DNA from: Cellulosimicrobium sp. Marseille-Q4280
Lineage (GTDB): Bacteria > Actinomycetota > Actinomycetes > Actinomycetales > Cellulomonadaceae
Assembly (NCBI RefSeq): GCF_943181405.1
Contig: NZ_CALPBY010000007.1
Coordinates: forward strand, 1-64,000
Length of the DNA stretch: 64,000 nt
Direction of reading: 5' to 3'
A program made the translations under genes and the position numbers. Below are positions 49,295-57,530 of this stretch, in pieces (the stretch's first letter is position 1; every line of letters starts with the position of its first letter). The notes below the pieces were generated by a model. That model saw only the letters and a list, made by a program, of their open reading frames with translations, searched no databases and was not told the origin of the DNA.

Positions 49295-49669
49295 TCAGCC
49301 GGGCGTCTGCGTGACGTAGATCGTGTTCGCGTCGGGGTCGCGGAACGAGAACATCGGCGGGACGCCCTCCCAGAGCAGGAGCTCGTCGACGTCCGCCCCC
49401 GCACCGGCGAGGAGTGCGTGGTCGCCCGCGGCGTCCGCCGTGGCGAGCCGGATCCCGGTGTCGACTCCCGACGGCAGACCGTCGCCCGCCGCGACGAGGG
49501 CGACGGACGTCGCGGCGCCGGGCGGGGCGACCTCGATCCATCGGAGGCCCTCCTGGAGCTCGGCGTCCAGGCGGAGCTCGAAGCCGAGCGTGCCGGTGTA
49601 GAACGCGAGCGCGCGGTCCTGGTCCGCGACCGGGATCGCGACGGTGTGCACGCCTGTGAGGCTGGTCAT
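49295..49669 (-). CDS. VOC-superfamily (glyoxalase-like) protein
   Basis: A 124-aa vicinal-oxygen-chelate protein. The N-terminal module has VHTVAIPVADQDRALAFYTGTLGFELRLD with a metal-binding His; the C-terminal module ends PPMFSFRDPDANTIYVTQ. Such small VOC proteins include glyoxalases and antibiotic-binding proteins; the substrate cannot be told. GGAGAAGA precedes ATG 49669. Confidence 0.8.
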   Translation of the reverse strand: MTSLTGVHTVAIPVADQDRALAFYTGTLGFELRLDAELQEGLRWIEVAPPGAATSVALVAAGDGLPSGVDTGIRLATADAAGDHALLAGAGADVDELLLWEGVPPMFSFRDPDANTIYVTQTPG

Positions 49670-49841
49670 GACTCTTCTCCTCGGAGGGTCGGACGGTGAG
49701 CCTGCAGCGCCGCGCTCGCACGGCCACCGGTACCGACGGCCCGGGTGGGTCGAACTCATCGATCGGGGCCGTCACCCGGTCGGGCGGGCACGGCGGGGGT
49801 GGGCGCCGGGTGTTGGTCGTGGCGCCTACGCTGGGAGGGCT

Positions 49842-52541
49842 ATGGCTTCACTCTTCGAGAATCTCCCGCTGCCCGGCCTCGACACGCTGTTCGACGGCCC
49901 GCGCGTCGACCACGGCGGCGAGTCCCGCCTCCCGCGGACGACCCCGCGCTGGACCGACGACCCGGCCGTGCCCGACGGCGGGGGGTCACCCGTGCCGGGC
50001 CCGGGGCGGGCCGGCAACCCCGACGACCCCGCGTCGTCGGGCCCGGTGCCCGGTGCCGCGGAGGGAACGGGGGAGCGGCGCGGACGGTACGCGCACATCG
50101 ACCCCGACGCGCTGCTCGACGGCATGAACCCCCAGCAGCGCGAGGCGGTCGTGCACGCCGGTGGGCCGCTGCTCATCGTGGCCGGCGCCGGGTCCGGCAA
50201 GACGCGCGTCCTCACGCACCGCATCGCGTTCCTCCTCGCGACGGGTCGCGCCCGCTCCGGGCAGATCCTCGCGATCACGTTCACCAACAAGGCCGCGGCC
50301 GAGATGCGCGAGCGCGTCGAGACGCTCGTCGGGCCGGCCGCGCGGAACATGTGGGTCTCCACGTTCCACTCCGCGTGCACGCGCATCCTGCGGCGCGAGG
50401 CGAAGACGCTCGGGCTGCGGTCGAGCTTCTCCATCTACGACGCCGCGGACTCCCAGCGGCTCATCACGCTCGTCACGCGCGAGCTCGACCTCGACCCGAA
50501 GAAGTACCCCGCGCGGTCGCTCGCGAACAAGATCTCCGACCTGAAGAACGAGCTCATCGACCCGGAGACGTACGCGCGCGAGTCCGGCGCCCACGCGACA
50601 GCCGACGGTCTCGGTGCCCGCGGTGCGAACGTGCCCGAGTTCGACCAGGTCCTCGCCGACGTCTACACCCGCTACCAGGCGCGTCTCGTCGCGGCGAGCG
50701 CGCTCGACTTCGACGACATCATCATGACCACGGTCAACCTGCTCCAGGCGTTCCCGGCCGTGGCCGAGCACTACCGCCGCCGGTTCCGCCACGTGCTCGT
50801 CGACGAGTACCAGGACACCAACCACGCGCAGTACGTCCTCGTGCGCGAGCTCGCGGGCGTGGGCGAGGACTCGGCCGCGACGGACCCTGCGACGAGCGGC
50901 ACGGGCGAGGCCCAGGTGCCCGCCCTGGACCCTGCCGAGCTCACCGTCGTCGGCGACGCCGACCAGTCGATCTACGCCTTCCGCGGCGCGACGATCCGCA
51001 ACATCCTCGAGTTCGAGGCCGACTACCCCGACGCGCGCACGATCCTGCTCGAGCAGAACTACCGCTCGACGCAGAACATCCTCTCCGCGGCCAACGCCGT
51101 CATCTCGCGCAACCCCGACCGCAAGCCCAAGCGTCTGTGGACCGACTCCGGCGCCGGCGCGAAGGTCATCGGCTACGTCGCGGACAACGAGCACGAGGAG
51201 GCGCGGTTCGTCGCCGAGGAGATCGACCGCCTCGGCGACACCGACGGCGTGCGGCCCGGCGACGTCGCCGTGTTCTACCGCACCAACGCCCAGTCCCGCG
51301 CGCTCGAGGAGGTGCTCATCCGCGTCGGCCTGCCGTACAAGGTCGTCGGCGGCACGCGCTTCTACGAGCGACGCGAGGTCAAGGACGCCGTCGCGTACCT
51401 GCGGGCCATCGACAACCTCGACGACGACGTCAACCTGCGCCGCGTCCTCAACACCCCCAAGCGCGGCCTCGGCGACCGGGCCGAGGGCGCCGTCGCGGCG
51501 CTCGCGGACCGCGAGCGGATCTCGTTCGGCGCCGCGCTCGACCGGATCGACGAGATCCCGGGCCTGACCAACCGCACGCTCAACCCGCTGCGCGGCTTCG
51601 TCGAGCTGATGGCCGGGCTGCGCGAGCTCGCCGACTCCGGCGCGACGCCGTCAGACGTGCTCGGGGCCGTCCTCGACCGCACGGGCTACCTCGCCGAGCT
51701 GCGCGCGAGCGACGACCCGCAGGACGCGACGCGCGTCGAGAACCTCGCCGAGCTGCACGCGGTCGCGACCGAGTTCACCGAGCTCGAGCCCGAGGGCACG
51801 CTGTCCGACTTCCTCGAGCGCGTCTCGCTCGTCGCCGACGCCGACCAGATCCCCGCCGACGACGTCGCGGACGGCGACGAGGGCACGGCCGAGGAGAAGG
51901 TCGACCCCGGGGTCGTCACGCTCATGACCCTGCACACCGCCAAGGGCCTCGAGTTCCCCGTCGTGTTCCTCACCGGCATGGAGGACGGGACGTTCCCGCA
52001 CATGCGGTCCCTGCACGACGACGCCGAGCTCTCCGAGGAGCGCCGCCTCGCCTACGTGGGCATCACCCGCGCGCGCGAGCGGCTCTACGTCTCGCGCTCG
52101 GCCGTCCGGTCCGCGTGGGGCATGGCGAACGAGTTCCCGCCGAGCCGGTTCCTCGAGGAGATCCCGGAGGAGCTGTGGGACTGGCGGCGCCGGGAGTCGT
52201 CGATGGCCACGCTGCGCGCCGGGGGTTCCGTGTGGGGTCGTGGGTCCGGCTCCGGGTCGTGGTCCGGGGGTCGGTCCGGGTACGGGTCGCGGTCCGGGTC
52301 GCCCGGCCGCGCGTCCCGGGGGAGCGCGTCCGGGGGTGCGACGTTCGGGTCGGCGACGCCGCGGCAGGACACCGACATCCCGAACCTGTCGCTGGGGGAC
52401 AAGGTGACTCACGACGCCTACGGGCTCGGGACGGTCGTGGCGCTCGAGGGGGCCGGGCCGAACGCCGTCGCGAAGATCGACTTCGGGGCGGACGGGACGA
52501 AGCGGTTGTTGCTGCGCTACTCGCCGGTCACGAAGCTCTGA
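49842..52541 (+). CDS. pcrA: ATP-dependent DNA helicase PcrA/UvrD
   Basis: Superfamily 1A 3'-5' helicase (899 aa) for repair and clearing of replication or transcription blocks. Motifs in order: Q-motif GMNPQQREAV, Walker A AGAGSGKT, Ia ITFTNKAAAEMRER, II VDEYQDTN, III GDADQSIYAFRGA, IV EQNYRSTQNIL, V MTLHTAKGLEFPVVFLTGME, VI YVGITRARERLYV. An N-terminal extension of about 85 disordered residues and a Gly/Ser/Arg-rich linker (about 790-830) lead to a C-terminal Tudor-like domain (GDKVTHDAYGLGTVVALEG), the RNA-polymerase-binding module of PcrA. TACGCT (49827-49832) is a likely -10. Confidence 0.95.
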   Translation: MASLFENLPLPGLDTLFDGPRVDHGGESRLPRTTPRWTDDPAVPDGGGSPVPGPGRAGNPDDPASSGPVPGAAEGTGERRGRYAHIDPDALLDGMNPQQREAVVHAGGPLLIVAGAGSGKTRVLTHRIAFLLATGRARSGQILAITFTNKAAAEMRERVETLVGPAARNMWVSTFHSACTRILRREAKTLGLRSSFSIYDAADSQRLITLVTRELDLDPKKYPARSLANKISDLKNELIDPETYARESGAHATADGLGARGANVPEFDQVLADVYTRYQARLVAASALDFDDIIMTTVNLLQAFPAVAEHYRRRFRHVLVDEYQDTNHAQYVLVRELAGVGEDSAATDPATSGTGEAQVPALDPAELTVVGDADQSIYAFRGATIRNILEFEADYPDARTILLEQNYRSTQNILSAANAVISRNPDRKPKRLWTDSGAGAKVIGYVADNEHEEARFVAEEIDRLGDTDGVRPGDVAVFYRTNAQSRALEEVLIRVGLPYKVVGGTRFYERREVKDAVAYLRAIDNLDDDVNLRRVLNTPKRGLGDRAEGAVAALADRERISFGAALDRIDEIPGLTNRTLNPLRGFVELMAGLRELADSGATPSDVLGAVLDRTGYLAELRASDDPQDATRVENLAELHAVATEFTELEPEGTLSDFLERVSLVADADQIPADDVADGDEGTAEEKVDPGVVTLMTLHTAKGLEFPVVFLTGMEDGTFPHMRSLHDDAELSEERRLAYVGITRARERLYVSRSAVRSAWGMANEFPPSRFLEEIPEELWDWRRRESSMATLRAGGSVWGRGSGSGSWSGGRSGYGSRSGSPGRASRGSASGGATFGSATPRQDTDIPNLSLGDKVTHDAYGLGTVVALEGAGPNAVAKIDFGADGTKRLLLRYSPVTKL

Positions 52542-52631
52542 GCGCCTGCCCGGGTCTTCGGCGACGCGGGCCGCGGAGGGTGCCCGGTCGGGTCGACACC
52601 CGGCGGCGAGAGCGACGCGCTGGCGACGTCG

Positions 52632-53204
52632 TCAGGACGCGGCGCGGCCGCGGTCGCCCGACGACCCCTGTCCGGTGAGCACCGCACGCAGGGCGGCGGG
52701 GTCGGAGCCCCTCTCCGCGAGGGCAGCGACGAGGGTGCGACAGGCAGACGTGTCCTCGTCGTGCAGGAGCGCGAGCAGCACGTGCCCCGAGTCGATCGCG
52801 GGTGCGCGCAGGGCGAGCGCCTCGCGCAGCGAGCGCTCGAGCACCTTCGCGGCCTCGTTCGTGAACGTGAGGTGCCCCCGGCGCCGTCTCCGGCCCGCAC
52901 GCTCGAGCGCGCCCGTGCCGAAGGCGGCGTCGGTCCTGGCGCGCACGGCGTCGAGGTCGATGCCCAGCGCGGCGAGCGCGTCGCCGTCGAAGGCGTCCGC
53001 AGACTCGGTCGCCGTGGCCAGGCGGTCCAGCGCCGGTGCCGTCAGTCCGACCGCGTCGAGCCCGCGGACGGCCGCGCCGTCTTCCTGCTCGGACACGGCG
53101 AGCAGCAGGTGCACCGCCTCGATCGACCCTGCACCGCGACGCCGCGCGACCTCCTGCGCACCGATGACGGCCGCGCGGGCGTCGGACGAGAAGCGTTCGA
53201 ACAT
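52632..53204 (-). CDS. Clp N-domain protein without ATPase (ClpC2-like)
   Basis: A 190-aa protein made of one double Clp_N domain: MFERFSSDARAAVIGAQEVARRRGAGSIEAVHLLLAV, then FTNEAAKVLERSLREALALRAPAIDSGHVLLALLHDED. There is no Walker motif. In ClpC the N-domain binds adaptors, phosphoarginine and antibiotics such as cyclomarin. Mycobacterial ClpC2 is a stand-alone Clp_N protein with an N-terminal DNA-binding part that titrates such drugs and represses its own gene. Here the two parts are separate genes: GGAGG inside the end of the HTH gene serves ATG 53204, which overlaps the HTH stop (TGATG). ATG 53207 is the alternative. Confidence 0.8.
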   Translation of the reverse strand: MFERFSSDARAAVIGAQEVARRRGAGSIEAVHLLLAVSEQEDGAAVRGLDAVGLTAPALDRLATATESADAFDGDALAALGIDLDAVRARTDAAFGTGALERAGRRRRRGHLTFTNEAAKVLERSLREALALRAPAIDSGHVLLALLHDEDTSACRTLVAALAERGSDPAALRAVLTGQGSSGDRGRAAS

Positions 53205-53422
53205 CATGACCTCCGGTTGCGGGGTGTGCCGTGCTTCTTGTGGACGGCCTGCCGGCTCACGCCGAGACGCTCGGCGATCTCCTGCCACGACCAGCCGAGC
53301 GCCCGGGCGTTCTCCACCTGCAGCACCTCGAGCCGCTCGGCGAGGGTGCGGAGCGAGCGCACGGCGCGCAGTCCCACGTCCGGGTCCGTGCTGCTGGCGG
53401 CGTCCATGTCGACGGGATCCAT
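53204..53422 (-). CDS. Small helix-turn-helix protein, partner of the Clp_N protein
   Basis: A 72-aa basic protein with a C-terminal helix-turn-helix (ALGWSWQEIAERLGVSRQAVHKKHG) after an amphipathic helix (AVRSLRTLAERLEVLQVENAR) that could dimerise it. The ATG at 53422 lies six bases after TAGATT, giving a leaderless mRNA. Two matching dyads cover its -10 and -35, so it very probably represses itself and the Clp_N gene. HTH plus Clp_N together equal the size and order of a fused ClpC2. Confidence 0.8.
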   Translation of the reverse strand: MDPVDMDAASSTDPDVGLRAVRSLRTLAERLEVLQVENARALGWSWQEIAERLGVSRQAVHKKHGTPRNRRS

Positions 53423-53425
53423 GCC

Positions 53426-53468
53426 GTCAATCTAGGTTGACGCACACGAGGTGTCAACTTGCGTTGAC
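53426..53468 (-). promoter_or_regulatory. Promoter with two GTCAAY-N4-GTTGAC operators
   Basis: The minus-strand promoter is near consensus: TTGACA (53457-53452), 17-base spacer, TAGATT (53434-53429), six bases to ATG 53422. O1, GTCAATCTAGGTTGAC (53426-53441), covers the -10. O2, GTCAACTTGCGTTGAC (53453-53468), covers the -35. Both are 16-bp dyads of one pattern, with starts 27 bp apart. Confidence 0.8.
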
Positions 53469-53515
53469 GCCCGTTCCGCGCCGCGGACGCCGACGGCGCG
53501 TCCGTCGCTCACCGC

Positions 53516-53610
53516 TAAGGTCGTCCGGGCCGTACGCGGCCGGGGTTGCCGGACGGGCCGGCACGAGAGCCGCGGGCGGCACGAGAGCCGCGGGACGACG
53601 AGGGGAACCC
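53516..53610 (+). promoter_or_regulatory. Promoter and leader of the OmpA-like lipoprotein gene
   Basis: TAAGGT (53516-53521) is a likely -10. The leader contains a 17-bp direct repeat GGCACGAGAGCCGCGGG (53560-53576 and 53578-53594) directly before the ribosome site GAGGGGA. Confidence 0.45.
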
Positions 53611-55242
53611 ATGACGAGCACCGACCACGGACGTGACGACCGCGCACGAGGCGACCAGGGACGGGTCGTCCCGGCCCGACGAGGGTTGCGCCGCGCGCAC
53701 GTGGCGGTGGCCGCCGCGCTGGCGGCGGCGTTCCTCGCCGCCTGCTCGCAGGGCGCCGCCGAGGCTCCTGCCGAGCCGTCGGCCACGGAGCGCCCCGTGC
53801 TCTCGACCGATCCCGCACCCGTCGTCGTGCCCGTGAACCTGTACGGGGCCGAGGCGGACGTGCGGGTCGGTCCCGTCGCCGTGCACGGCGATCTCGCCGT
53901 CCTGCGAGTCGAGGTCGAGGGCACCGCCGGCGAGAGCACGGTCATGCTGGGCTACGAGCTCGCCAACCGCACGCTGAGCCAGGACGAGTCGTTCTCCGGC
54001 GTCCGGCTCGTCGACCTCGACACGGGCGTCGTCCGGGAGGCCGCGCACACCGCCTCCGGTGAGCCCGTCGGCCTCCTCGAGGGCGGCTGGCAGCTCGGTG
54101 CCGGGAAGGAGCCGAGCGTGGGCTACGTCGCGTTCGACCCGCCGACCACCGCGACCACGTCCGTCCTGGTCCCGTCCGTCGGGCTGGTCGAGGACGTGCC
54201 GGTGGTCGAGGCCGACGACGCAGGCGGGCTGACCGTCGCCCCGACCGAGCTGGACGGGGGGCAGGGCGCCGACGTCGTCGCGCCCGTCGCGTTCCTCGAG
54301 TCCTACAGCACACAGGCCTCCGGCGCCGTCCGCACGCGTCAGGACGAGGAGACGGTGACGATGGCCGTCGACTCGGACGTCCTCTTCGCGGTCGACTCCG
54401 CCGACCTCGGCGCGGGTGCCGACGACGCCCTGGGTGTCGTCGCCGAGCAGGTGGCGCTCGCCGAGGGCGGCGAGCTCGTCGTCGTCGGCCACACCGACGA
54501 CGTGGGCGACGAGGCGGCGAACCAGGAGCTCTCCGAGCGTCGCGCACAGGCCGTCGCGGACCGTCTGTCGACGCTCGCCGACCTCGGTGCCCTCGACGTC
54601 CTCGTCGAGGGCCGGGGCGAGAGCGACCCGGTCGCCGAGCAGGCCTCGGAGGAGGCCCGTGCGCTCAACCGGCGCGTGACCGTCGAGTTCACGCCCGAGG
54701 CGCCCGAGCCCAGCGCGCTCCCCGAGGAACCGCAGCCCGGGGCCGCTCCCGCCGCCTCGGGCCCGACCGTCGACGGGCTCGGTGCGGCCACCCTCGACCA
54801 CCCGGACGGTCTCGGCGCGACGCACCGGCTCGACGTCGAGCTCGTCGACGTGCGCCGCGTGGGCGGCTACCTCGTGGGGGACCTCAGGGTCAGCAACGTC
54901 GGCACCGAGCACGCCTCGCTGGTGTCGGTGCTCGGGTCGACGTACGACGGGCGCGGCGACCTCACCGGCAACCACCTCGGTGCCGGCAACGTCACGCTCC
55001 TCGACGGCGGCACGCGCGTCTACCCGGCGGACTACCTCGTCGACCCCACGCTGTACACGGACGTGGTGCGCAACCCGCTCGCCGAGGCCATCGTGGGCTC
55101 TCTCGACCCGGGCCTCGGCACCGCGGTCACCGTCGTGTGGCCCGACACGGGTGCGGACGTCGTGGTGGTCGACGTGCCGGACGCCACCGCGACCGACGGC
55201 AGCTCGCCCGTGCGGTTCGACGAGGTCCCCGTCACGGGCTGA
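53611..55242 (+). CDS. OmpA-domain lipoprotein
   Basis: A 543-aa predicted lipoprotein: charged N-terminus, hydrophobic stretch and lipobox LAAC (VAAALAAAFLAACSQG), so the mature protein is anchored by Cys about 45. A middle region of unknown fold (about 70-240) is followed by an OmpA-like peptidoglycan-binding domain (DVLFAVDSADLGAGADDAL...VVVGHTDDVGDEAANQELSERRAQAVADRL, ending ALNRRVTVEF), then another beta-rich region of about 190 residues. OmpA domains in Gram-positive bacteria tie membrane proteins to peptidoglycan. The exact role is unknown. Confidence 0.8.
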   Translation: MTSTDHGRDDRARGDQGRVVPARRGLRRAHVAVAAALAAAFLAACSQGAAEAPAEPSATERPVLSTDPAPVVVPVNLYGAEADVRVGPVAVHGDLAVLRVEVEGTAGESTVMLGYELANRTLSQDESFSGVRLVDLDTGVVREAAHTASGEPVGLLEGGWQLGAGKEPSVGYVAFDPPTTATTSVLVPSVGLVEDVPVVEADDAGGLTVAPTELDGGQGADVVAPVAFLESYSTQASGAVRTRQDEETVTMAVDSDVLFAVDSADLGAGADDALGVVAEQVALAEGGELVVVGHTDDVGDEAANQELSERRAQAVADRLSTLADLGALDVLVEGRGESDPVAEQASEEARALNRRVTVEFTPEAPEPSALPEEPQPGAAPAASGPTVDGLGAATLDHPDGLGATHRLDVELVDVRRVGGYLVGDLRVSNVGTEHASLVSVLGSTYDGRGDLTGNHLGAGNVTLLDGGTRVYPADYLVDPTLYTDVVRNPLAEAIVGSLDPGLGTAVTVVWPDTGADVVVVDVPDATATDGSSPVRFDEVPVTG

Positions 55243-55356
55243 CCGGACGAGCGGTGCGCGCTGGCCCGGCCCGCGGCCCGCCCGACGTGACCAACGGAAC
55301 AGCGGCGGTCGAGCACCGTTCGCCTGGCCCGGATAGGTGCCGTCGCCCGCGAGGGC

Positions 55357-55391
55357 TACCCTGTACGGGGATGTCTTGATGTCGAGACATC
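55357..55391 (+). promoter_or_regulatory. sucCD promoter with dyad at the transcription start
   Basis: TACCCT (55357-55362) is a likely -10. GATGTCT (55370-55376) and AGACATC (55385-55391) form a perfect 7-bp dyad beginning where transcription should start, so it could be an operator or a hairpin at the mRNA 5' end. The leader to GTG 55435 is about 65 bases. Confidence 0.5.
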
Positions 55392-55434
55392 GGTCATGCC
55401 GCACACGGCGCATCAGACGGAAGGACGCAGCAGG

Positions 55435-56613
55435 GTGGACCTGTTCGAATACCAGGCGCGTGACATCTTCGAGAAGCACGGCGTGCCCGTGCTGGGCGGC
55501 GTCGTCGCGACGACCCCCGACGAGGCCCGGGCGGGCGCCGAGCAGCTCGGCGGGGGCACCGTGGTCGTCAAGGCCCAGGTGAAGACCGGCGGCCGCGGCA
55601 AGGCGGGCGGCGTCAAGCTCGCCCACTCGCCCGAGGAGGCGGCCGAGAAGGCGTCCGAGATCCTCGGCATGGACATCAAGGGCCACACGGTCCACCGCGT
55701 GATGATCGCCGCGGGCGCGCGCATCGCGGAGGAGTACTACTTCTCCGTCCTGCTCGACCGGTCGAACCGCTCCTACCTCGCGATGGCGAGCGTCGAGGGC
55801 GGCATGGAGATCGAGCAGCTCGCGGTCGAGCGTCCCGAGGCGCTCGCGCGCGTCGCCGTCGACCCGACAGTCGGGATCGACGCGGCGAAGGCCGCGGAGA
55901 TCGTCGAGGCGGCCGGTTTCGCCGCAGACGTCAAGGAGGCGGTCGCCGAGACGATCCAGAAGCTCTGGACGGTCTACCAGGCCGAGGACGCGACGCTCGT
56001 CGAGGTCAACCCGCTCGTCAAGACCGAGGACGGCCAGGTCGTCGCGCTCGACGGCAAGGTCACGCTCGACGAGAACGCCGGGTTCCGCCACGCGGACCAC
56101 GCCGCGCTCGAGGACAAGGCCGCGGCGGACCCGCTCGAGGCGAAGGCCAAGGAGAACGACCTCAACTACGTCAAGCTCGACGGCGAGGTCGGCATCATCG
56201 GCAACGGCGCAGGGCTCGTCATGAGCACGCTCGACGTCGTCGCGTACGCCGGCGAGGCGCACGGCGGCGTGAAGCCCGCCAACTTCCTCGACATCGGCGG
56301 CGGCGCGTCCGCGGCCGTCATGGCCGCGGGTCTCGACGTCATCCTCAACGACCCGCAGGTCAAGAGCGTGCTCGTCAACGTCTTCGGCGGCATCACCGCG
56401 TGCGACGAGGTCGCCAACGGCATCGTCCAGGCGCTCGCCATCCTCGGCGACGAGGCGAACAAGCCGCTCGTCGTCCGCCTCGACGGCAACAACGTCGAGG
56501 AGGGACGTCGCATCCTCGCGGAGGCGAACCACCCGCTCGTGACGCTGGCCGAGACGATGGACGGCGGCGCGGACCGGGCTGCTGAGCTCGCCGCCGCCTC
56601 CACCGCCGCCTGA
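55435..56613 (+). CDS. sucC: Succinyl-CoA synthetase beta subunit
   Basis: SucC (392 aa) forms with SucD the TCA-cycle enzyme that makes ATP or GTP from succinyl-CoA. The ATP-grasp part begins [18 protein letters not shown] and has [19 protein letters not shown]; the C-terminal CoA-ligase part shows [11 protein letters not shown] and [12 protein letters not shown]. The start is GTG 55435 after GGAAGGA. sucD follows after 38 bases. Confidence 0.95.
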
Positions 56614-56651
56614 GCCCGCCCGAGACGACCCGAGAGAGAACAGACACAGAC

Positions 56652-57530
56652 ATGGCAATCTTCATCAACGAGGACTCCAAGGTCATCGTCCAGGGCATGA
56701 CCGGCTCGGAGGGCATGAAGCACACGACGCGCATGCTCGCGTCGGGCACGAACGTCGTCGGCGGCGTGAACCCCCGCAAGGCGGGCCAGAGCGTCGAGTT
56801 CCCCGGTGACGTGACCGTCCCGGTGTTCGGCTCCGTCGCGGAGGCGATGAAGCAGACCGGCGCGGACGTGTCGGTCATCTTCGTGCCGCCGGCGTTCACG
56901 AAGGCCGCCGTCGTCGAGGCGATCGACGCGCGCATGCCGCTCACGGTGATCATCACCGAGGGCGTCCCCGTCGCGGACTCCGCCGAGTTCTTCACGCTCG
57001 CGCAGCAGGCCGGCGTGCGCCTCATCGGCCCGAACTGCCCCGGCATCATCAGCCCCGGGAAGTCGAACGTCGGCATCATCCCGGCGAACATCACGGGCCC
57101 CGGCAAGATCGGCCTCGTGTCCAAGTCGGGCACGCTGACCTACCAGATGATGTACGAGCTGCGGGACTTCGGCTTCTCGACGGCCATCGGCATCGGTGGC
57201 GACCCGATCATCGGCACCACGCACATCGACGCGCTCGCCGCGTTCGAGGCGGACCCGGAGACCGAGGCGATCGTCATGATCGGCGAGATCGGCGGCGACG
57301 CCGAGGAGCGTGCCGCGGCCTTCATCCAGGCGAACGTCACGAAGCCGGTCGTCGGCTACGTCGCGGGCTTCACGGCCCCCGAGGGCAAGACGATGGGCCA
57401 CGCGGGCGCCATCGTGTCCGGCTCGTCCGGCACCGCGCAGGCGAAGAAGGAGGCCCTCGAGGCCGCCGGCGTCAAGGTCGGCAAGACGCCGTCCGAGACC
57501 GCCGCGCTCATGCGCGAGATCCTCTCCTGA
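56652..57530 (+). CDS. sucD: Succinyl-CoA synthetase alpha subunit
   Basis: SucD (292 aa) binds CoA and carries the phosphorylated His. The CoA-binding part has [15 protein letters not shown] and [29 protein letters not shown] and [16 protein letters not shown] follow. The active-site His lies in [14 protein letters not shown] perfect terminator hairpin lies 30 bases after the stop, closing the sucCD operon. Confidence 0.95.

What the first reader, a model, noticed from the sequence alone, without database searches (positions are those of the whole stretch)
52632..53468. Split ClpC2-like module: HTH repressor plus Clp_N decoy with a two-dyad operator
Seen: a 72-aa HTH gene and a 190-aa Clp_N-only gene overlap by one base. 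Their promoter carries two dyads of one pattern (GTCAAY-N4-GTTGAC), one over the -10 and one over the -35. Known: mycobacterial ClpC2 joins a DNA-binding part to a Clp_N domain, binds ClpC1-targeting compounds and represses its own promoter. Inference: here the sensor and the DNA-binding part are separate proteins. A drug, phosphoarginine protein or adaptor bound by Clp_N could then release the HTH protein and induce a decoy that protects ClpC.
Basis: partly seen in the sequence, partly recalled or inferred. Interest (0 to 1): 0.75.

Follow-up and report, generated by a model that had tools for sequence, protein, structure and literature searches.

The report
Two-protein ClpC2-like repressor and decoy operon
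A small DNA-binding protein and a free copy of the drug-binding domain of the ClpC protease share one self-controlled operon in Cellulosimicrobium and many other actinobacteria; it looks like a sister of the mycobacterial ClpC2 antibiotic sponge in which switch and sponge are two proteins, and the switch also appears to control a pump gene.

Summary
A 72-aa HTH gene and a 190-aa Clp_N-only gene overlap by one base, and two exact GTCAAY-N4-GTTGAC dyads cover the -35 and -10 of a leaderless-looking promoter. The pair belongs to a separate, widespread actinobacterial lineage rather than being a broken ClpC2: it is in tandem in 25 of 25 related loci, and at least nine sampled genomes carry both split and fused forms.

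The operator spacer separates the two forms. Split loci have 4 bp (31 of 40; 5 bp in 0). Fused loci have 5 bp (17 of 19; 4 bp in one doubtful row). HTH-only loci keep 4 bp, so the HTH alone probably reads the operator. The predicted recognition helix of ClpC2 falls between its two solved fragments (4-72, 94-252).

In Cellulosimicrobium the same twin operator also lies 3 nt before an ABC half-exporter gene (11 of 17 genomes). This link is lineage-specific.

That Clp_N acts on the HTH protein, and that a ClpC-binding compound is the inducer, remain inference. Phosphoarginine has no support here.

The parts
53204..53422 (-). 72-aa HTH protein, predicted repressor: long helix 14-41, then helix-turn-helix 46-53 / 57-64
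   Evidence: AlphaFold2 model pLDDT 88; counterpart in 25 of 25 related loci
52632..53204 (-). 190-aa stand-alone Clp_N protein (no ATPase modules), predicted sensor and decoy
   Evidence: PDB sequence matches to ClpC1 NTD (best E 5.6e-15) and ClpC2 C-terminal domain (4.9e-6); model pLDDT 92, best Foldseek hits ClpC and ClpC1 NTD
53426..53441 (.). proximal operator dyad GTCAAT-CTAG-GTTGAC, over the -10, 3 nt before the HTH start codon
53453..53468 (.). distal operator dyad GTCAAC-TTGC-GTTGAC, over the -35
53452..53457 (-). -35 hexamer TTGACA
53429..53434 (-). -10 hexamer TAGATT

Best explanation
The operon is a two-protein relative of mycobacterial ClpC2. The 72-aa HTH protein, as a dimer, binds the two 4-bp-spaced dyads over its own promoter and over the promoter of an ABC half-exporter and represses both (operators shown by sequence and conservation; binding inferred). 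The co-encoded Clp_N protein has the fold and key ligand-contact residues of the ClpC N-terminal domain. It probably works with the HTH protein as sensor: when a peptide natural product or an unfolded client fills Clp_N, the HTH protein lets go of DNA, more Clp_N is made as a sponge that spares ClpC, and the exporter removes the compound (inferred from fused ClpC2, the shared operon and the shared operator).
For: Pair: 25 of 25 related loci in tandem, 4-bp dyads in 25 of 25 with a relaxed pattern. Named loci, chosen by likeness to the split HTH: 79 of 80 split and 1 cut at a contig end; 4-bp dyad in 76 of 80, 5-bp in 0 of 80. Operator goes with the HTH: 36 of 38 exact twin 4-bp sites in 296 phylum genomes lie beside an HTH-profile hit (lists compared by eye); reversed control 0. 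Spacer rule. HTH-only loci: 4-bp dyad in 6 of 21, 5-bp in 0. Second target: twin 4-bp dyad 3 nt before the exporter start in 11 of 17 genus genomes; of the 12 genus exporters with an intact 5' side 11 have exact dyads and 1 has dyads with 1 and 2 mismatches. The same in three genomes of another genus at 61-63% exporter identity. The window Clp_N keeps F2, F80 and E89 of ClpC1, named for cyclomarin binding in PMC10030653 (passage). There fused ClpC2, with the same half-sites, is shown to repress its own promoter and to be released by cyclomarin A (sections 10 and 11 read).
Against: Interaction of HTH and Clp_N was neither tested nor modelled. Six HTH-only genomes keep the dyad without a stand-alone Clp_N, so the HTH may sense by itself. 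The exporter link is lineage-specific: 4 of 26 examined exporter rows in 61 family genomes have a 4-bp dyad, and three 81-82% identical ones in another genus have none. The window Clp_N has A where ClpC1 has K85. In the tuberculosis germ desoxycyclomarin raised ClpC2 but an ecumicin analogue and an ilamycin did not (PMC12913811, passages).
Confidence: 0.5

Rival explanations
1. The HTH protein senses a signal by itself and Clp_N is only a regulated output: a decoy or holdase with no part in sensing.
For: Six genomes keep the HTH gene and a 4-bp dyad without a stand-alone Clp_N of this type; in two of them, of one genus, the HTH gene is followed by an ABC half-exporter gene.
Against: A 72-aa protein modelled as a long helix plus an HTH has little room for a ligand pocket; in fused ClpC2 the same two parts are one chain and the ligand binds the Clp_N half (PMC10030653, section 7 read).
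Confidence: 0.25
2. The HTH protein is a ClpC-ClpP substrate and its turnover reports ClpC activity: misdirected or hyperactive ClpC removes it and opens the operon.
For: It is a small HTH repressor encoded with a ClpC domain; HTH-only genomes still have ClpC-size Clp_N proteins.
Against: No degron was looked for; blocked ClpC would then tighten repression.
Confidence: 0.1
3. General protein-stress operon: Clp_N soaks up unfolded clients or adaptors, and antibiotics are incidental.
For: ClpC2 is also induced by heat (section heading of PMC10030653) and is said to be released by unfolded proteins (PMC12913811, passage).
Against: The extra genes next to such operators are an exporter, a hydrolase and a flavin-enzyme gene rather than chaperones, but these are few and lineage-specific.
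Confidence: 0.15

Closest known systems
ClpC2 (Rv2667 and actinobacterial orthologues; Taylor et al. 2023, PMC10030653)
   Same: HTH-type N-terminal part plus Clp_N; twin GTCAAC...GTTGAC operators over -35 and -10; leaderless start; Clp_N with F2/F80/E89-type contact residues
   Different: ClpC2 is one chain with a 5-bp operator spacer (CGTCAAC-n5-GTTGACG) and forms its own clade; here two proteins and a 4-bp spacer, in some genomes beside a fused form
RelI antitoxin of RelS-RelI (Rv2664; PMC13284704, passages)
   Same: Short HTH protein; best PDB sequence match to the HTH profile (9sdc, E=2.7e-5)
   Different: Encoded next to a RelE-like toxin, not next to Clp_N
ClpC / ClpC1 N-terminal domain
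   Same: Clp_N fold and contact residues
   Different: Here a free domain without the AAA+ modules

Membership tests
ClpC2 (fused) | HTH part and Clp_N in one polypeptide | tested here: not met
   Two frames in the window; separate in 25 of 25 related loci
ClpC2 (fused) | Operator GTCAAC-N5-GTTGAC | tested here: not met
   4-bp spacer in the window; split 4 bp 31/40, 5 bp 0/40; fused 5 bp 17/19
ClpC2 (fused) | Twin operators over -35 and -10, leaderless start | tested here: met
   (leaderless by position, not by transcript mapping)
ClpC2 (fused) | N-terminal part homologous to that of ClpC2 | tested here: met
   HTH profile of split proteins hits fused frames at E about 1e-11 to 1e-7; the solved fragment 8ADA itself only at E=0.0065
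ClpC2 (fused) | Clp_N falls in the ClpC2 clade | tested here: not met
   The clade of 14 of 19 fused rows (SH-aLRT 98) excludes the window, which sits among split rows; deep order unsure
ClpC2 (fused) | Cyclomarin-contact residues F2, F80, E89 | tested here: met
   F, F, E in the window
ClpC2 (fused) | Represses its own promoter and is released by cyclomarin | not testable with these tools
   needs protein and cells
RelS-RelI toxin-antitoxin | Short HTH protein next to a RelE-like toxin gene | tested here: not met
   The partner gene is Clp_N in the window and in 25 of 25 related loci
ClpC ATPase | AAA+ modules after Clp_N | tested here: not met
   190-aa protein with Clp_N only; a ClpC-size frame of 862 aa lies elsewhere in the genome, C5

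The most novel reading that the evidence does not exclude
A second, widespread ClpC-guard system of actinobacteria. Sensor and decoy (free Clp_N) and switch (small HTH) are two proteins. The switch carries the guard response to lineage-specific detox genes (exporter, hydrolase). A one-base-pair change of operator spacer insulates it from fused ClpC2 in the same cell.
Probability: 0.35. Interest if true: 0.8.

Novelty: new variant of a known kind. Interest (0 to 1): 0.62.

Why it matters
ClpC1 is the target of several peptide antibiotics, and ClpC2 is the self-inducing sponge described against one of them. A separate two-protein version, in some genomes next to a fused one, would let switch and sponge be studied apart. 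It also bears on where ClpC2 binds DNA: the likely recognition helix falls between the two solved fragments, while the published model puts DNA binding on the Clp_N half. The spacer rule (4 against 5 bp) and the exporter operator are simple, directly testable predictions. I found no paper that describes the split pair, the 4-bp operator or a ClpC2-type operator before an exporter in my searches (open-licence PMC papers only, read as listings except the three papers cited).

Tried and rejected
Sequencing frameshift of a fused ClpC2: rejected. The genes are separate in 25 of 25 related loci, with the Clp_N start from 1 base inside the HTH stop to 35 bases after it.

TetR operator near the exporter: a divergent TetR-type gene (named by eye from its translation) lies there with what looks like a dyad of its own. 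The twin 4-bp dyads are nevertheless beside HTH-profile hits in 36 of 38 cases and absent from 22 of 26 exporter rows (of 28 rows I left out two that are second halves of split matches).

Full report
What is there. On the minus strand a 72-aa HTH gene (53422..53204) and a 190-aa Clp_N-only gene (53204..52632) overlap by one base. Their promoter, TTGACA-N17-TAGATT, carries one exact dyad on each hexamer, and the start codon lies about 7 nt after the -10, so the message should be leaderless. The genus is probably Cellulosimicrobium: two same-genus contigs (G006:C4, 238,883 bases; G008:C12, 388,535 bases) have the lengths of named contigs of C. cellulans NBRC 15516 and C. arenosum (inference from equal lengths).

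Conservation. In 25 loci of the order the pair is in tandem in 25 of 25 and 4-bp dyads are present in 25 of 25, with a relaxed pattern that also allows GTCAG and CTGAC. All 17 genus genomes have at least one exact twin site; in the family sample 78 of 150 genomes do, the reversed control 0 of 150. An HTH-profile search (E up to 1e-4) hit 97 of 296 phylum genomes. From its capped list I picked and fetched 80 matches: 40 split, 19 fused, 21 HTH without neighbouring Clp_N. The 80 best named loci, chosen by likeness to the split HTH and so biased to it, were 79 split and 1 cut by a contig end; a 4-bp dyad was present in 76, a 5-bp dyad in 0. Streptomyces, Kitasatospora, Actinomadura, Promicromonospora and a few Mycobacterium and Mycolicibacterium records are among them.

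Spacer rule. Upstream of split genes the spacer is 4 bp in 31 of 40 loci and 5 bp in 0. Upstream of fused genes it is 5 bp in 17 of 19 and 4 bp in 1; that row, L114, has one site of each kind and may be a frameshifted draft sequence. Other spacers from 0 to 12 bp gave one site in all 105 loci. The shorter core CAAY-Nk-RTTG as a twin gave split 28 of 40 at k=4, fused 14 of 19 at k=5 and HTH-only 4 of 21 at k=4, nothing at other k from 1 to 9, and 0 of 704 control stretches. Of nine split loci without the strict dyad five still have the 4-bp twin core and four do not. Nine sampled genomes hold both a split and a fused form; in five both sides show their own spacer, in four one or both sides lack a strict dyad, in none is the rule reversed. 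The fused forms in two of the nine (L134, L145) lie outside the main ClpC2 clade. The published operator of ClpC2 is CGTCAAC-n5-GTTGACG (PMC10030653, section 10 read), in agreement with the fused class.

Which part reads DNA. HTH-only loci keep 4-bp dyads (6 of 21) and never 5-bp ones. In the six genomes with them, the Clp_N profile finds only frames of 834 to 1241 aa (ClpC or ClpB by size), apart from one weak match (E=3e-4) in a 429-aa frame of G236. So the HTH protein most likely recognises the operator without Clp_N. The ClpC2 paper solved residues 4-72 and 94-252 and from the latter proposed DNA contact through R185 and R189; the double mutant bound DNA less well, and a dimer mutant of the N-terminal part also lost repression (sections 7 and 11 read). 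The HTH profile matches 8ADA only up to its last residue, 72. In fused frames the conserved ...SW..IG..MGV ends at residue 72 in 8 of 16 printed rows (67, 71 or 76 in three, five missed by the script; start codons chosen by the script), and TKQAAQKRF or similar follows. In the window protein that stretch is the second HTH helix, residues 57-64. I infer that the recognition helix of ClpC2 lies in residues 73-93, absent from both solved fragments. The position equal to R189 is R in 14 of 19 fused rows; in split rows it is A in 27 and R in 20 of 65, and A in the window; the R185 position is R in 49 of 65 split rows and in 18 of 18 ClpC rows. This weakens, but does not exclude, a DNA role of Clp_N in the split system. 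A 2026 paper already noted an HTH region in ClpC2 by comparison with RelI (PMC13284704, passages).

A regulon. The other exact sites of this genome form a twin 28 bp apart on contig C1, 3 nt before the start of a 631-aa ABC half-exporter (PF00664 and PF00005; NCBIfam matches stay below their cut-offs in the 25 rows shown, so its cargo is unknown). Eleven of 17 genus genomes have this second twin, each before the same gene. Thirteen have the exporter (E up to 1e-80): 12 with its 5' side, of which 11 carry exact dyads and 1 dyads with 1 and 2 mismatches; one is cut by a contig end. Three genomes of another genus have it too (61-63% identity), and one of a further genus has one exact site and one with 1 mismatch (L344). 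Counter-evidence: in 61 family genomes only 4 of 26 examined exporter rows have a 4-bp dyad, and three 81-82% identical ones in one genus have none. Elsewhere a 4-bp twin lies 3 nt before an alpha/beta-hydrolase gene (G212), and 5-bp twins lie beside FAD-enzyme genes of the monooxygenase type in two genomes of one genus. In two genomes of one genus an HTH gene with a 4-bp twin is followed by an ABC half-exporter only 35-36% identical to this one. Of 19 twin 5-bp sites in 296 genomes 16 lie beside HTH-profile hits, two are the FAD-enzyme sites and one (G318) is unexplained (lists compared by eye).

Evolution. With ClpC N-terminal domains as outgroup (18 rows, support 99), 14 of 19 fused rows form one clade (98) and the split rows lie outside it, with several long and unsure branches. 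The tree does not settle which form is older or how often fusion or fission happened.

How it most likely works. Repression by the HTH protein at both promoters is the firmest step (about 0.8). Clp_N acting on the HTH protein rests on the fused relatives and the shared operon (about 0.5). A ClpC-binding natural product as inducer rests on conserved contact residues F2, F80 and E89 (F, F, E in the window; 56, 49 and 49 of 65 split rows) and on ClpC2 (about 0.4). In the tuberculosis germ desoxycyclomarin raised ClpC2 but an ecumicin analogue and an ilamycin did not (PMC12913811, passages), so the inducer may be narrow.

Verdict. Real, conserved, ClpC2-like in working and homologous in both parts, but not a member of the fused ClpC2 family as defined by its single chain and 5-bp operator. 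New, as far as the searches reach (open-licence papers only): the two-protein lineage with its spacer rule, its coexistence with fused forms, and the exporter target.

Noticed in passing
G000:C1:325328-325371 (L067 4329-4372): Twin 4-bp dyad 3 nt before an ABC half-exporter gene, with a divergent TetR-type gene; same genome, outside the window.
   Followed up: yes
L245 3860, L246 4114: Twin 5-bp (ClpC2-type) dyads beside FAD-enzyme genes in two genomes of one genus: a possible second target of fused ClpC2.
   Followed up: partly
L244 3997-4039: Twin 4-bp dyad 3 nt before an alpha/beta-hydrolase gene.
   Followed up: partly
L249 3531 and L250 2961: HTH-only loci whose 4-bp twin dyads also face a divergent LD-carboxypeptidase (S66) gene or a GNAT acetyltransferase gene.
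   Followed up: no
L252 2815 (G318:C176): Twin 5-bp dyad without a listed HTH-profile hit beside it.
   Followed up: no
window 49644-57530: The operon sits between a UvrD/PcrA-type helicase gene and an OmpA-like lipoprotein gene followed by sucC and sucD; some relatives show the helicase end or sucC nearby (L020, L083; names from reading the translations).
   Followed up: partly
L127-L130, L165: HTH-profile hits in five genomes of one unnamed genus (g44) as larger frames with no Clp_N and no dyad: another branch of this HTH family.
   Followed up: no
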